DNA of 64,000 bases, from positions 186,001 to 250,000 of the forward strand of contig NZ_AUHJ01000003.1 of NCBI RefSeq assembly GCF_000423125.1, read 5' to 3'. The stretch's first letter is position 1; each line of letters starts with the position of its first letter. The notes beneath the pieces are model-generated. The model had not been told where the DNA came from. It ran no database searches and saw only the letters and a list, made by a program, of their open reading frames with translations. Positions 23,533 to 58,472 of the stretch are shown here, one piece after another. The position numbers were made by a program, and so were the translations under genes. The stretch is from Haliea salexigens DSM 19537. Lineage in GTDB: Bacteria > Pseudomonadota > Gammaproteobacteria > Pseudomonadales > Halieaceae.

Positions 23533-23735
23533 GCGGTTCACCTCTACCTGACAGAAAGCCCAGTGTACTGCCCTTCCCGTTTCTGGTGTAGCGGGTGTAA
23601 GCTGCCCGAACGGCATTCCCGCAGCGCTGCCACTGTACTGTCACACTTTTGCCCTAACGTGCAGGCAGAAGCACCCCGGCGCAGTGAACCAAAGTGTAGA
23701 CGCCGGGTCTGACTGGGAAGAACAAGGACTGCAAA

Positions 23736-52035: not shown

Positions 52036-52485
52036 TCAGTCCTGTTCCTTCCAGTTGCCGATATCGGCGTTCTGGCCTTCGCCTCCCGACAGGCCATCGG
52101 CGCCGAGGCTGTAAATATCCACTTCACCGTTTTCGCCCGGGCTCAGAAACAGGTAGGGGCGCCCCCAGGGATCCAGCGGCACTTCCGGCAGGTAACCACC
52201 GTCCTTGAAATTACGTGGCTGCGGATCGAGATTGCTCGCCTCGACCAGCGCATCGAGGCCCTGCTCGGTGGTTGGATAGACGTAGTTGTCGAGGCGATAG
52301 ATTTTCAGCGCGGTCTCGATCGCCTTGAAATCGGCGTGAACTTTCTGGATGCGCGCTTCATCCGCCCGGTTGAGCACCGTGGGTGCCACAACACTGATCA
52401 GCAGCCCCATGATCACCAGCACCACCAGAATTTCCACCAGCGAGAAACCGCTGTGCGCCCGCCTTGCTGTCGTCGGCAATTTCAT
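52036..52485 (-). CDS. gspG: Type II secretion major pseudopilin G
   Basis: Major pseudopilin forming the piston shaft, 149 aa. GFSLVEILVVLVIMGLLIS has Gly(-1), mature Phe1 and Glu5. The head has the conserved YRLDNYVYPTTEQGLDALVE and YLPEVPLDPWGRPY motifs, and a C-terminal calcium-site stretch DIYSLGADGLSGGEGQNADI. The ATG at 52485 is 4 bp after gspF. It is the clearest GspG landmark of the operon. Confidence 0.96.
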   Translation of the reverse strand: MKLPTTARRAHSGFSLVEILVVLVIMGLLISVVAPTVLNRADEARIQKVHADFKAIETALKIYRLDNYVYPTTEQGLDALVEASNLDPQPRNFKDGGYLPEVPLDPWGRPYLFLSPGENGEVDIYSLGADGLSGGEGQNADIGNWKEQD

Positions 52486-52489
52486 ATCA

Positions 52490-53710
52490 CTATCGCACCA
52501 TCGTATTGAGATCAAAAATCGGCAACAGAATGGCCATGACTATGACCAACACCATGCCGCCCATAAACACCACGAGCAGGGGTTCGAGCAGGCTCATGAG
52601 TGTTCCCAGTGTCATTTCCAGTTCGCGCTCCTGATTGCTGGCCGATCGCGCCAGCATGGTTTCCAGTTCGCCACTGGCTTCGCCGCTGGCCACCATGTGC
52701 ACCATCATCGGCGGGAACCGGCCATTCTCTCGCAGCGCTCGGTGCAGGCTGCTCCCCTCCTGCACCCGCTCAGCCACGCGGGCACTGTCTTCTCGCAGCA
52801 CCAGGTTGGTCAACACCTGCCCGGCAATGCGCAGCGACTCCAGCAGGGGCACCCCGCTGGCCATGAGAATGCTCAGGGTCGAAGCAAAACGCGCCGTGTC
52901 CATCGCTATCACCAGCCGGGAGAAACCCGGCACGCGCAGCAACAGGGCATGCCAGCGCCGGCGACGCTGAGGCTGGCGCAGCCAGCGCCGCAGCCCGAAC
53001 ACCAAAAGCACCACGGCCACCAGCACCCACAGCGCGTAGTCGCGCGAAAAATCGCTGGCGACAATCAAGCCTCGGGTCAGCAGTGGCAACTCGCGGTTGG
53101 TGTGCGCAAAAATGCCGATCAGCTCCGGTACGACAAAAATCATCAGTGCCACAACCACCGCCAGCGCCACGGCGATCAGGATAAACGGATAGATCATGGC
53201 CATTTTCAGCTTTTGCGCGGTGTACTGGCGCTGTTCGTTGTAATCGGCCAACTGCGCCAGCACCGGACCGAGAAAACCCGCATGCTCCCCGGCGTTGACC
53301 ATGGCCCGGTACATTTCGTTGAACACCAGCGGGAACTCACCCATGGCATAGGCGAGCGTATGACCCTCCGCGACCCTGGAGCGCACCTGCAACAACAGCC
53401 CCTGCGTCCGGCCCTTGCGGCTCTGCTCGGCGGCTGCCTGCAAACATTCGTCCAGCGGCAAATTGGACTGCACCAGTGTGGCGAGCTGCCGGGTCACCAG
53501 CGCCAGTTCGGCAACACTGATACGCGGCTGCAGAAACGACCACCCTGAACGCGGCTTGCTCTCCGCCTGGCGGTTTGCCACCACAACGTCAACCGGGCGC
53601 AGCTTCTGCGTGCGCAGCTGGCCGCGCACCTGGCGCTCGGAATCACCTTCGAGCACGCCCTTGACCAGCTTGCCGCTGGCATCCAGTGCCCGGTAACGAT
53701 ATGCGGTCAT
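52490..53710 (-). CDS. gspF: Type II secretion inner-membrane platform protein F
   Basis: Polytopic platform protein of 406 aa with two related cytoplasmic GspF domains separated by membrane helices. TAYRYRALDASGKLVKGV is the family start; LALVTRQLATLVQSNLPLDE opens the first domain and RFASTLSILMASGVPLLESL the second. GGMVLVIVMAILLPIFDLN is the last helix. It works with GspE and GspL to add pseudopilin subunits. It follows gspE after 14 bp. Confidence 0.95.
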   Translation of the reverse strand: MTAYRYRALDASGKLVKGVLEGDSERQVRGQLRTQKLRPVDVVVANRQAESKPRSGWSFLQPRISVAELALVTRQLATLVQSNLPLDECLQAAAEQSRKGRTQGLLLQVRSRVAEGHTLAYAMGEFPLVFNEMYRAMVNAGEHAGFLGPVLAQLADYNEQRQYTAQKLKMAMIYPFILIAVALAVVVALMIFVVPELIGIFAHTNRELPLLTRGLIVASDFSRDYALWVLVAVVLLVFGLRRWLRQPQRRRRWHALLLRVPGFSRLVIAMDTARFASTLSILMASGVPLLESLRIAGQVLTNLVLREDSARVAERVQEGSSLHRALRENGRFPPMMVHMVASGEASGELETMLARSASNQERELEMTLGTLMSLLEPLLVVFMGGMVLVIVMAILLPIFDLNTMVR

Positions 53711-53724
53711 AAGCGCCTATCGGC

Positions 53725-55230
53725 TCAGGTGACAGCGGTGACGCGCAGCACTTCTTCGATGCTGGTTTCACCGCTCAGGATGCGCCGGCGACCGTCCTCC
53801 TGAATCCCCGGATAGTGCTTGCGCGCTTCGAGCAGCATCTGCTGCTCGCTCGCGCCCTCGTGAATCATCAGGCGCAGCGCGTCCGTCACCTCGATAAGTT
53901 CATAGATACCTGTGCGCCCACGGTAGCCGCCGAAATTGCACTGCTCGCACCCCTTGGCCCGATAGACACTGACCGCTGCCGTGGTATCCGCAGAGAGTCC
54001 CAGTAGCGTGCGCTCGGAATCTGCCAGTTGATGTGGCTCCTTGCAGTCGCGGCAAAGCAACCGCACCAGACGCTGGGCCATCACGCCAATCAGGCTTGAT
54101 GACAGCAGGAAAGGCTCAATACCCATGTCCTGCAGACGCGTCACCGCGCCGATGGCGGTATTGGTGTGCAGCGTGGACAGCACCAGGTGGCCGGTGAGGG
54201 ACGCCTGCACCGCGATTTCCGCCGTTTCCAGGTCGCGAATCTCGCCGACCATCACCACGTCAGGGTCCTGCCGCAGAATAGCCCGCAGGCCGCGCGCAAA
54301 GGTCATGTCGACCTTGGGATTGACCTGCGTCTGCCCCACACCTGGCAGCATGTACTCCACCGGGTCTTCTATGGTGAGGATATTGCGCGTGGCCTGGTTG
54401 ATATGCGACAGGCCGGCATACAGCGTTGTGGTTTTACCCGACCCCGTGGGGCCGGTTACCAGGATGATGCCGTGTGGACTGCGCAGAGCCTTTTCATAAC
54501 TGTGCAGCACCTGCTCATTCATATTCAATTGCCGCAGTTCCAACTGCCCGGCCTGCTTGTCCAGCAGGCGCAGCACCACGCGTTCACCGTGGGCAGAGGG
54601 CATGGTCGACATGCGGATATCAATGGCGTGCCCGGCTATTCGCACGGAAATGCGGCCATCCTGGGGCACCCGCTTTTCGGCGATGTCCAGCTTCGCCATC
54701 ACTTTCAGCCGCGACACCAGCAGCGGCGCCAGCATCCGCTTCGGGGACAGCACCTCCGCCAGCACGCCATCCACCCGATAGCGCACGCTGAGCCGGTCCT
54801 CGAAGGTTTCAATATGGATGTCCGAGGCCTGCTCACGCACGGCCTGGGAGAGGATGGCGTTGATCAGACGAATGATGGGCGCATCGTCCTCGGCGTCCAT
54901 CAAATCGCCCGCGTCCGGTATTTCATCGGCGAGACGGCTGAGGTCGACGTCGGCACTGATGTCTTCCGCCATCTGCACCGCCGCGTTGTTGTCGCGTTGG
55001 TAAGCGCGGGAGAGGCGCCGCTGGAACTCGGCATCCGACACCGTCTCGCATTCGAACGGGGCGCCCAGCCAGCGACGAATCTCCAGCAACAAGGGGGCCT
55101 CAAGAGGGCCACGGTGCACGAGCACCGCTCCCTGCGCCCGGTTATCAACCAGCACGCCAAACTGCTTGGCAAACCCGAAGGGCAGGTTTGCCCTCGGCGG
55201 CTCGGGCACCGCGACCTCCGCGGAGGTCAT
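53725..55230 (-). CDS. gspE: Type II secretion ATPase E
   Basis: Hexameric cytoplasmic ATPase of 501 aa driving pseudopilus growth. Walker A is [10 protein letters not shown] at about 260-269, with [10 protein letters not shown] and VRYRVDGVL before it and the Asp box [13 protein letters not shown] after it. A zinc-binding tetracysteine is formed by LLCRDCKEP and CEQCNFGG near 395-435. An N-terminal N1E-type region docks on GspL. The start ATG shares one base with the gspD stop. Confidence 0.96.
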
Positions 55231-57266
55231 CAGTCGGCCTCCACAGCCGCCGGCGTGTTACCCGACTCGTCGCGGATTTCCTCCAACTGCCGGATTTGTT
55301 CTTCCCACTCGGGCAATACCGGCACGCTGCTGTCATCAAGGAACATCAGGCCCCGCTCGCGACGCAGCACCTGCTGGTCGCGGATATAGCGGTACTTGTC
55401 TGCCGTGGCGCCGGCGAGTTGTTCGTCATCGCGAATGATCGTGGGCCGAATGAAAATAAGCAGGTTGGTTTTAATGACCTGTACTGCGTCATTGCGGAAC
55501 AGGCGCCCGAGCAGCGGAATATCGCCGAGCAGCGGCACCTTCTGGCTGGCGTCCTGCACATCGTCCTTGATCAGACCGCCGAGCACCACAACGCGTCCAT
55601 CCGCCGCCAACACCTTGGTTTGCAGTACGCGCTCGTTGGTGATCAGGTCAGACGCCTGTAACACCACGGACGTGTTGCTGAGACTGGAGACTTCCTGGGA
55701 GATATCCAACACCACAGAGTCTCCCTCGTTGATGTGGGGCGTCACCTTGAGCGTAATGCCCACATTCTCCCGCTCAATGGTCTGGAACGGGTTTTGTGCA
55801 CCATCGCCGGTACCGGTGCTGGTAAATGAACCGGTCACAAACGGCACGTTCTGGCCCACGGTGATGTAGGCTTCCTGATTGTCCAGCGTCAGCAGGCTGG
55901 GTGTTGACAGGATGTTGGCGTTGGATTTCTCCTTCAGGGCGTTGAGAATCACGGTCATCGACAGATTGTCATCAATCACGCCCCAGCCCAGGGAAACACC
56001 CGGTGACTGAGCCAGCGCGCCCGCCAGGGCGCCCACGTTGAAGTCGCCCGTGGTCACGCCGCCGTCGGTCCCGTCACCGCCATCTTCCGGCAGAATGGCC
56101 CCGGCTATGCGTCGCGCCCGCGCATCGTCAGCACTGATACTGCTGCCGAAAAAGCCGTTGTCGTTGGCAAACAGCCACTGCAGGCCCAGATCCTGGCCGT
56201 CACGCACTTCCATCTCGACGATGATGGCCTCCACCAGCACCTGGGCGCGGCGTATGTCGAGGCGCGCCACAACCGCCTCCAGCGCCGCCATCTTGTCGGT
56301 CGGCGCGGTAATAATCAGGGCATTGGTATTGGCGTCGGCCTCGATGGTCGCGCTGGTTTCAGATGCACGCTGCGCGCGCCCCGCCTCGCCGGCATCCACC
56401 CGGCCGATGTTCTGCATGACCTTGGTCAGCACCTCGGCAATGTCCTCCGCCTTGGCGTACTCCAGGTAGATCACCTTTACGTTGCCGCTTTGCTCGAGAG
56501 GCGTGTCGAGATAGCGGATCAGCTGCGTCATGCGCGCACGCTCCAGCTCATCGGCACTGATCAACACACTGTTGGTGCGCGCATCCGCTACCAGCATGAC
56601 CTCAACCTCATTGCCCTGCTGCGCCTCTGAGGTGTTGAGCTGGTCGAGCATACGCACCACGTCTTCAGCGACGCCATAGCGCAGCTTGATGACCTCGGTC
56701 TCCTGCGTTGCCGTGCGGTCCATGCGCTCGATGATCGCCGCGATGCGATCAATGTTGGAGGCCACATCCGAAATGATAATGGCATTGCTCGGCGCGTACG
56801 CCGCCATATGTGCCTGTTGCGGCACCAGGGGCCGCAGCACGGGTATCAGCTTGGCGGCGGAAATGTTCTTCAGGCGCATGACCTGCGTGACATATTCGTC
56901 ATTGCCGCGCCGTCCCTCGTCGTCGCGCACCGTCACCGGTGCCGAGCGGGCGTCTTTGCTCTGTATCACCCGCACTACCCCGCCGGAGCGGACTGCGGTG
57001 TAACCATGCACTTCCAGTATGGACAGGAAGAGATCATAGAGCTCAGTGCGCGACACCGGCTTGGAGGACACCACCTTGACCTTGCCCTTGACTGCCGGGT
57101 CCACCACGATCGTGATGTCGGTCGCCTCCGCCACGAACTTGATCAGCTCCTGAATATCGGCCTCTTTCAGGTTGACCGTGAAATCCTGGGCGCTCGCGAC
57201 AGCTGCCCACAGGGCAGCCAGCAGATAAAACAGCGGTACTCGCAGTGCCCGCAACATGGTTCTCAC
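55230..57266 (-). CDS. gspD: Type II secretion secretin D
   Basis: Outer-membrane channel of the secretion system, 678 aa. A signal peptide ends at VASAQD; the N0 domain ([19 protein letters not shown]) and N1-N3 repeats follow, then the secretin core with [14 protein letters not shown] and [20 protein letters not shown]. Translation uses a GTG with AAGGA ten bases upstream; an ATG three codons later lacks such spacing. No pilotin gene is adjacent, so assembly may use a distant one. Confidence 0.95.
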
Positions 57267-57302: not shown

Positions 57303-58364
57303 TCACCGATCCGTCGACGCAGCATCAAGGCTCACACTGAGTGCCACCGCTTCACCGGCGCGCAGTAGCTCGAACGAGACCTCGCTTGCGGAGCGCATGG
57401 CCTGGTAGAGCCGCATGGTGTTTGCCGGATCTGACAGGGACAGGCCATTCACCGCCAGCACAAGGTCACCGGCGCGAAATCCCAGCTGCTCGAACTGCGC
57501 CCGATCCCGTCCCGGTGTCACCCGATAGCCCTGCAGGGCGCCCTCCTCGCGCACCGCGCTGATGCGCACCAGATCGGCCAGTGACTGGGGGTCCTCATAC
57601 AGCTGGTCGCGATAGCCCGCCGCCAGCGCCGCGGATTCCGCATCGCTGCGCCGGTCGATAACCGCGGCCGCAACCGGCGCCGTGCGCGTGTCACCGGCAG
57701 CCATTGCGCGGCGCCCCGTGAGCTGCGCATCAAGTTCGTTTGGAGGGTACAGGCGCAGAAGCTCGTAGGTGCCGCCGTTGTCCAGAACCACCTGCTGCGG
57801 CATGACCTTGGCCAGCACCACATTGCCGCCGACAGGCAACTCGTCGTCCACGGAATAAATTGCCTGCCGGCCGCGATACTCAATCACCGCGCTGCCCTCA
57901 CCGGCTGCATTGAAGGCAATGATGCCACGGAGGGTAAGCTCGAGCCGGCTTTCCCGGGCTCCTCGCTCGATACCCTCGCGGGCTGCACGCGCCTCGCTGG
58001 GGAGTGGGGCCACCTCTTCCACCACGGATCCTGCGCCGGGCTCACCGAACAGCGCCCAGCCACGCAGTGCCTCAATGTCTACAGGCGTTCGCTCGCCGGG
58101 CGCTGAGATTGCCTCCGCCGGGGGATTGATAACGCCACCCGACAACGCTGTTGCTGGCGCTGCGGGGAACAGCGCCCAGAACAACTGCGCCAGTGCCGCC
58201 ATCAGCCAGCATACCGCGAGTGCCAGCACACCCCGGCGCAACCAGCGCACACAGCGCGGCTCTGCCAGCATCGCCAGCAGCCGCTGCGCACCGGCCACCC
58301 ACTTCCCTGCAACGCTGCCCTGATTCAGTGAACCTGCGGCCAATGCTCTCTCCCGGTGTGCCAC
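57303..58364 (-). CDS. gspC: Type II secretion protein C
   Basis: Inner-membrane component linking the platform to the secretin, 353 aa. One membrane helix (GVLALAVCWLMAALAQLFW) follows a 44-residue cytoplasmic start. A periplasmic homology region is near 120-200 (ELTLRGIIAFNAAGEGSAVIEY), and a PDZ domain spans about 260-345 (GYRVTPGRDRAQFEQLGFRAGDLV, NGLSLSDP). It is the first gene of the gspCDEFGHIJKLMN operon. Translation begins at a GTG at 58364, and the upstream DNA carries the PhoB-type sites. Confidence 0.93.
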   Translation of the reverse strand: MAHRERALAAGSLNQGSVAGKWVAGAQRLLAMLAEPRCVRWLRRGVLALAVCWLMAALAQLFWALFPAAPATALSGGVINPPAEAISAPGERTPVDIEALRGWALFGEPGAGSVVEEVAPLPSEARAAREGIERGARESRLELTLRGIIAFNAAGEGSAVIEYRGRQAIYSVDDELPVGGNVVLAKVMPQQVVLDNGGTYELLRLYPPNELDAQLTGRRAMAAGDTRTAPVAAAVIDRRSDAESAALAAGYRDQLYEDPQSLADLVRISAVREEGALQGYRVTPGRDRAQFEQLGFRAGDLVLAVNGLSLSDPANTMRLYQAMRSASEVSFELLRAGEAVALSVSLDAASTDR

Positions 58365-58416
58365 CGTCCGCCGGCGGCGGCCTCATGGATGTAACGGCCC
58401 GATTATAGGGTGCGCC

Positions 58417-58422
58417 ATTAAA
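58417..58422 (-). promoter_or_regulatory. Putative -10 element of the gsp operon
   Basis: On the minus strand TTTAAT lies exactly 10 bp after the last TGTCA-type half-site heptamer, the spacing of E. coli Pho promoters in which the box takes the place of the -35. A second, better hexamer TATAAT at 58402-58407 lies 15 bp further downstream and is an alternative. Confidence 0.5.
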
Positions 58423-58428
58423 AGATAA

Positions 58429-58472
58429 AACCGTGACGGTTGCGTGACAGGCAGATGACAAGGGCATGACAG
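58429..58472 (-). promoter_or_regulatory. Tandem Pho boxes (PhoB binding sites) upstream of the type II secretion operon
   Basis: Read on the minus strand, the half-sites CTGTCA, TTGTCA, CTGTCA and CCGTCA begin at 58472, 58461, 58450 and 58439: four direct repeats at exactly 11-bp spacing. PhoB dimers bind two such repeats, consensus CTGTCA plus an AT-rich spacer, so this is two complete boxes. The spacers here are less AT-rich than usual. Orientation and position put them immediately upstream of gspC rather than cysK. Phosphate-starvation control of the whole gsp operon is the inference. Confidence 0.8.

What the first reader, a model, noticed from the sequence alone, without database searches (positions are those of the whole stretch)
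58402..58472. Double Pho box controls a complete type II secretion operon
Four TGTCA-type half-sites (CTGTCA, TTGTCA, CTGTCA, CCGTCA on the minus strand) repeat at exactly 11 bp, with a -10-like TTTAAT 10 bp after the last heptamer. This reproduces Pho-promoter geometry directly upstream of gspC. The only well-known phosphate-starvation-induced type II system is Hxc of Pseudomonas aeruginosa, a second, specialised copy that secretes an alkaline phosphatase. If this is the organism's main or only T2SS, general protein secretion here would be coupled to phosphorus scarcity, a plausible adaptation to phosphate-poor seawater. The architecture is seen; the regulation is inferred.
Basis: partly seen in the sequence, partly recalled or inferred. 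Interest (0 to 1): 0.85.

Follow-up and report, generated by a model that had tools for sequence, protein, structure and literature searches.

The report
Phosphate-starvation switch on secretion operon
In this marine bacterium the genes for a protein-export machine sit behind a DNA switch of the kind bacteria use to sense phosphate shortage; similar wiring has been reported in other bacteria, so this is a well-supported new example rather than a new kind of thing.

Summary
Observation confirmed. Minus strand 58472-58433 carries four TGTCA-type heptamers at 11 bp (27/28 consensus matches; 0 sites at 25 or more in 38.4 Mb simulated), 10 bp before TTTAAT and 25 bp before TATAAT, upstream of a complete gspC-N operon in a Haliea relative that has phoB-phoR-pst. 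Across nine genomes the GTCA cores are conserved (0.88) and the spacers are not (0.38). Pho-type sites precede gspC in 44 of 123 Halieaceae genomes, by clade. TTTAAT/TTCAAT at the 10-bp position accompanies the TATAAT promoter in 14 of 14 genomes with a site and 0 of 31 without. Most likely PhoB-P activates the operon on top of a basal promoter. Against: models trained on phoB/pstS boxes do not list this site (GC-rich spacers); two PhoX and two PhoD genes show no Pho box; the genome has a second T2SS without one. Pho-controlled type II secretion is already reported in Caulobacter and Pseudomonas aeruginosa, so this is a new member of a known kind. Regulation is inferred, not measured.

The parts
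58433..58472 (-). four tandem Pho-box-type heptamers CTGTCAT gccc TTGTCAT ctgc CTGTCAC gcaa CCGTCAC, 11-bp period (proposed PhoB sites)
   Evidence: conserved cores in relatives
58417..58422 (-). TTTAAT, proposed -10 of the PhoB-dependent promoter (P1), 10 bp after the last heptamer
58402..58407 (-). TATAAT, proposed -10 of a basal promoter (P2), also present in relatives without a Pho-type site
57303..58364 (-). gspC
   Evidence: TIGR01713 above cut-off
55230..57266 (-). gspD (secretin)
   Evidence: TIGR02517 above cut-off
53725..55230 (-). gspE
   Evidence: TIGR02533 above cut-off
52490..53710 (-). gspF
   Evidence: TIGR02120 above cut-off
52036..52515 (-). gspG
   Evidence: TIGR01710
51429..52127 (-). 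gspH (ORF start uncertain)
   Evidence: TIGR01708 just below cut-off (74.4 against 80 bits); PF12019
50984..51460 (-). gspI
   Evidence: TIGR01707
50344..51228 (-). gspJ (ORF start uncertain)
   Evidence: TIGR01711
49338..50396 (-). gspK
   Evidence: NF037980
48101..49426 (-). gspL (ORF start uncertain)
   Evidence: TIGR01709
47631..48104 (-). gspM
   Evidence: PF04612
46879..47634 (-). gspN
   Evidence: PF01203
58561..59529 (+). divergent neighbour, cysteine synthase (cysK family); not part of the proposed regulation
   Evidence: TIGR01139; neighbour not conserved with the site

Best explanation
The gspC promoter is a two-start promoter. A basal sigma-70-type promoter (TATAAT at 58407-58402) gives background T2SS expression. 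Immediately upstream, a tandem array of four 11-bp Pho repeats binds phosphorylated PhoB when phosphate is scarce; the last heptamer takes the place of a -35 element, 10 bp before TTTAAT, and PhoB recruits RNA polymerase there (or also helps the basal promoter), raising transcription of the whole gspC-N operon. Shown: the repeats, their spacing, both hexamers, the operon, the phoB-phoR-pst genes, and selection on the cores in relatives. Inferred: that PhoB binds here, that it activates rather than represses or merely binds, and that secretion rises in low phosphate.
For: 27/28 heptamer match and no simulated equal; best fourfold TGTCA site of the genome; heptamer-only matrix trained on phoB/pstS/porin/ppk sites (no gspC sites in training) ranks it first in 235,011 bases of this genome; phoB, phoR, pstS, ppk and a porin of the same genome carry TGTCA-type boxes and PhoB passes TIGR02154; GTCA cores 0.88 mean pairwise identity against 0.38 in spacers and 0.33 in the 5' flank over nine genomes, own included; 44 of 123 family genomes have a site at p<=0.02 in the promoter-proximal range, where about 2-3 are expected by chance; 6 label changes on a GspD tree of 74 labelled rows; the 10-bp hexamer TTTAAT/TTCAAT in 14 of 14 site-bearing genomes with the basal promoter and 0 of 31 without a site, and TTCAAT/TTAAAT at the same 10 bp in 7 genomes of other clades; phoB boxes of 21 genomes also peak at 10 bp; in 17 of 24 site-bearing named loci the cysteine synthase is not the neighbour, so the site travels with gspC.
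Against: Covariance-free profiles built from 28 and 23 phoB/pstS/porin/ppk sites list 3 and 6 sites in the genome and not this one; with spacers scored it is ninth in 235 kb. Its linkers are GC-rich, whereas the Pho-box definition quoted in PMC3511308 has A/T-rich linkers. Two PhoX and two PhoD phosphatase genes show no Pho-type box, so no co-regulated secreted phosphatase was found. The site is absent from 79 of 123 family genomes by my threshold. The pstS-side boxes do not peak cleanly at 10 bp (offset 8 first, 10 second). Conserved PhoB binding without detectable regulation is known in E. coli (rmf, PMC10294691).
Confidence: 0.77

Rival explanations
1. PhoB binds but has little effect, or represses the basal TATAAT promoter, so the T2SS is not phosphate-induced.
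For: The TATAAT promoter is conserved and perfect; PhoB is a dual regulator and some conserved sites showed no regulation in E. coli (PMC10294691); hxcR of P. fluorescens SBW25 is not Pi-induced (PMC2225411).
Against: A -10-like hexamer at the canonical 10 bp is present in 14 of 14 site-bearing genomes of that promoter type and 0 of 31 others; in the Congregibacter/Pseudohaliea/Chromatocurvus group my scan saw the 10-bp hexamer without a TATAAT promoter.
Confidence: 0.13
2. Another OmpR-family response regulator that prefers TGTCA repeats with GC-rich linkers binds here, not PhoB.
For: Linkers differ from phoB/pstS boxes; a second set of GC-linked fourfold sites stands before a PAP2-glycosyltransferase gene pair, so a separate subtype of site exists.
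Against: At the same place in Parahaliea relatives the linkers are AT-rich (e.g. ATTTCATAAAACTGTCAC), as in pstS boxes; heptamers and 10-bp geometry equal those of phoB.
Confidence: 0.07
3. The site serves the divergent cysteine synthase gene.
For: The gene is divergent in this genome and in 7 of 24 site-bearing named loci.
Against: In 17 of 24 it is not the neighbour (no tblastn hit at E<=1e-10); repeats and both -10 hexamers point to gspC.
Confidence: 0.02
4. Chance repeat without function.
For: Site missing in many family members (79 of 123).
Against: Simulation, core-against-spacer conservation, clade-wise distribution.
Confidence: 0.01

Closest known systems
Caulobacter crescentus gspC-N T2SS in the PhoB regulon
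   Same: gspC-N operon reported among PhoB-regulon genes and up in phosphate starvation (PMC11208175, one passage; PMC2996285, passages); also expressed in rich medium, 1.7-fold up in poor medium for gspE/gspL
   Different: Alphaproteobacterium; secreted lipoprotein ElpS known there; no promoter architecture was seen in the passages I read; here no substrate is known and no expression measured
Hxc T2SS of Pseudomonas aeruginosa (and P. fluorescens)
   Same: T2SS linked to phosphate limitation (PMC9769906, passages)
   Different: Hxc is an extra system with phosphatases LapA/LapB; the operon here is the family-wide gspC-N system (134 of 140 genomes). In P. fluorescens SBW25 hxcR is not Pi-induced (PMC2225411)
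Classical Pho promoters (pstS, phoB)
   Same: 11-bp direct repeats of TGTCA heptamers; -10 ten bp after the last heptamer
   Different: Four repeats, GC-rich linkers, and an adjacent TATAAT promoter 15 bp downstream

Membership tests
Pho-box promoter | two or more 7-bp TGTCA-type direct repeats at 11 bp | tested here: met
   four repeats, 27/28
Pho-box promoter | A/T-rich 4-bp linkers (definition as quoted in PMC3511308) | tested here: not met
   linkers gccc, ctgc, gcaa; met at the orthologous place in Parahaliea relatives
Pho-box promoter | -10 hexamer at fixed spacing (10 bp) after the last heptamer | tested here: met
   TTTAAT, 5/6; phoB boxes of 21 genomes peak at 10
Pho-box promoter | scores with known Pho boxes of the genome | tested here: inconclusive
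   not listed by R1/R2; first by heptamer-only score, ninth with spacers
Pho regulon membership | PhoB/PhoR present | tested here: met
   TIGR02154 above cut-off, PhoR domain PF11808
Pho regulon membership | PhoB binds and changes expression | not testable with these tools
   no binding or expression data
Type II secretion system | gspC-N core genes | tested here: met
   prepilin peptidase gspO not looked for
Hxc-type specialised T2SS | extra copy with a linked Pho-controlled alkaline phosphatase | tested here: not met
   PhoX and PhoD genes lie on other contigs without Pho-type boxes and no PF00245 phosphatase was found

The most novel reading that the evidence does not exclude
In Halieaceae the general gspC-N T2SS has been put under, or released from, phosphate control several times by gain and loss of a Pho-type promoter beside a basal one; in some lineages (Congregibacter, Pseudohaliea and Chromatocurvus relatives) the basal TATAAT promoter is not seen, so their secretion of exoenzymes could depend on phosphate stress, and in others (Kineobactrum sediminis, some Luminiphilus relatives) the phosphate-controlled system is the only T2SS that I detected.
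Probability: 0.3. Interest if true: 0.6.

Novelty: new member of a known kind. Interest (0 to 1): 0.42.

Why it matters
Type II secretion releases the enzymes with which marine bacteria break down polymers. If phosphate stress raises this whole export route, carbon turnover by abundant Halieaceae would be tied to phosphorus supply. The family offers a natural comparison: relatives with and without the Pho-type promoter before the same operon, with the -10 hexamer coming and going together with it.

Tried and rejected
Rejected: chance; control of the divergent cysteine synthase; 'only T2SS of the organism'. Led nowhere: models R1 and R2 with spacers did not list the gspC site; no Pho-type box at the second T2SS (best score 12.3, inside the preceding ORF, 235 bp before gspE) or at PhoX/PhoD; no paper on Pho control of type II secretion in Halieaceae appeared in the listings, which search one open-access library and of which searches showed only part of the papers found. 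A second fourfold match in the window around 23615 (22/28) was looked at by eye only. My register-finding misplaces the last heptamer in several rows (it takes TTTTGCCAT as a repeat in the Congregibacter group and stops early in G020); and reading by eye replace it there. The PAP2 query was translated out of frame by mistake and is disregarded; the glycosyltransferase query stands.

Full report
What is there. On the minus strand upstream of gspC four heptamers, CTGTCAT, TTGTCAT, CTGTCAC and CCGTCAC (58472-58433), start exactly 11 bp apart; 10 bp further lies TTTAAT (58422-58417) and 25 bp further TATAAT (58407-58402). The array matches 27 of 28 positions of a Pho heptamer consensus (recalled from general knowledge); 38.4 Mb of first-order Markov sequence had none at 25 or more. 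Family models identify gspC, D, E, F and G to N (GspH just under its NCBIfam cut-off, GspM and GspN by Pfam), so the operon is complete apart from a prepilin peptidase gene, which I did not look for.

Which organism. GspD is 99% identical to that of Haliea alexandrii (the list may leave out the window's own record). The genome has 4,258,722 bases in 76 contigs. It encodes PhoB (TIGR02154), PhoR, PstS and ppk.

Rank in the genome. TGTCA-N6-TGTCA occurs exactly at 8 places, two of them the overlapping gspC pairs; others lie before pstS and a porin gene, and three (C1:191839, C9:95105, C5:231851) have no assigned phosphate gene, while C15:22666 lies before a DUF885 protein. Matches with one mismatch (80 on each strand in all, against 65 and 63 for the reversed control) include phoB and ppk; only part of that list was shown. 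The fourfold pattern with up to 3 mismatches has 7 matches, control 0, and the gspC site alone has 1 mismatch. Scored by heptamers only, with a matrix trained without gspC sites, the gspC array ranks first in 235,011 bases (two, three or four repeats); scored with linkers it is ninth. That set was chosen to contain TGTCA sites and is not the whole genome. The profiles R1 and R2, which model the AT-rich linkers of phoB and pstS boxes, list 3 and 6 sites at E up to 10 and not gspC; several listed sites were in their training sets. This result is against the finding and stands.

Conservation. Over nine genomes (own, seven others of the genus, and G132) mean pairwise identity is 0.88 in the 16 GTCA columns, 0.38 in the 12 linker columns, 0.33 in the 5' flank and 0.96 in the promoter stretch after the array; no one of 20,000 relabellings of core and linker columns equalled the difference. 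The number of repeats varies from 2 to 4.

Distribution. 134 of 140 family genomes encode this GspD (78 of 78 good ones). Regions upstream were taken for 130 of the 134; seven were too short or without a gspC frame, leaving 123. With p<=0.02 and a promoter-proximal place, 44 of 123 have a Pho-type site: 8 of 8 in the genus, and members of codes g3, g6, g7, g11, g19, g21, g24, g25, g26 and g27; none of 8 in g9 and none of the g23 genomes examined. Several g21 sites are weaker in form. Among named loci 24 of 77 have a site, 50 not, 3 undecided, with 6 changes on a GspD tree (FastTree): the Haliea-Kineobactrum-Parahaliea group (missing in Sediminihaliea), the NOR5-3/Pseudohaliea/Chromatocurvus group, Halioglobus pacificus, and some Luminiphilus and related MAGs. 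The tree cannot tell gain from loss.

Two promoters. Of 45 genomes in which a search expression found the TTTTA...TATAAT promoter, all 14 with a site have TTTAAT or TTCAAT 15 bp upstream of TATAAT, which is 10 bp after the last heptamer, and 0 of 31 without a site do. The 14 are one clade, so they are not independent; but TTCAAT or TTAAAT also stands 10 bp after the heptamer in 7 genomes of other groups, six of which show no TATAAT, and Halioglobus pacificus has both. The phoB boxes of 21 genomes peak at the same 10 bp; 12 pstS-side boxes do not peak cleanly (8 first, 10 second).

Target. The cysteine synthase is the divergent neighbour in 7 of 24 site-bearing named loci and was not found in 17, so the site goes with gspC.

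A second T2SS. Contig C6 carries genes for GspE, GspF and a GspD-family secretin, with pseudopilin-like genes between (GspE and GspF there are below the NCBIfam cut-offs, GspD above). The secretin-last order recalls Xanthomonas Xps (from memory). No Pho-type box precedes it. Its secretin is found in 71 of 140 family genomes and is missing in 19 of the 44 site-bearing ones, some of them incomplete; G054, the Kineobactrum sediminis genome, is 99% complete.

Substrates. Two PhoX and two PhoD genes have no Pho-type box (best score 9.1, inside a gene) and no PF00245 phosphatase was found. So a Hxc-like partner is not shown.

Literature, as far as seen. Passages of PMC11208175 list the Caulobacter T2SS in the PhoB regulon; passages of PMC2996285 describe ElpS secretion in phosphate starvation and gsp expression also in rich medium. 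Passages of PMC9769906 report Hxc and Xcp proteins up in low phosphate; PMC2225411 reports hxcR not Pi-induced. PMC10294691 passages warn that conserved PhoB binding can be without effect and that spacing to the promoter is strict. Hence the kind is known, and the member is new as far as the searches named in Tried and rejected show.

Verdict. The sequence evidence for a PhoB-type promoter beside a basal promoter before the gspC-N operon is strong; the regulation itself is unmeasured.

Noticed in passing
L042:4462-4501 (G000 contig C8) and L326-L334: Another GC-linked fourfold TGTCA-type site lies just before a PAP2-phosphatase gene followed by a glycosyltransferase; in 9 of 12 relatives' loci fetched the glycosyltransferase is encoded beside the matching site. 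It may be a phosphate-starvation lipid-remodelling unit (inference).
   Followed up: partly
L035:5835-5868 minus (G000 contig C5:231834-231867): A strong Pho-type box (fourth in R2) before a small exported protein and a second, lipoprotein-like ORF of unknown role.
   Followed up: partly
L039 and L321 (G000 contig C6): A second T2SS cluster with the secretin gene last and an MshE-type c-di-GMP-binding motif in its GspE (NF053729).
   Followed up: partly
G084:C365:16734-16804 and G012:C1:2394004-2394085: Long runs of TGTCA repeats at 11 bp, five or more in a row or on both strands; genes beside them not identified.
   Followed up: no
window 23604-23640, plus strand: A weaker fourfold TGTCA-like match (22/28) before an unidentified gene.
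   Followed up: no
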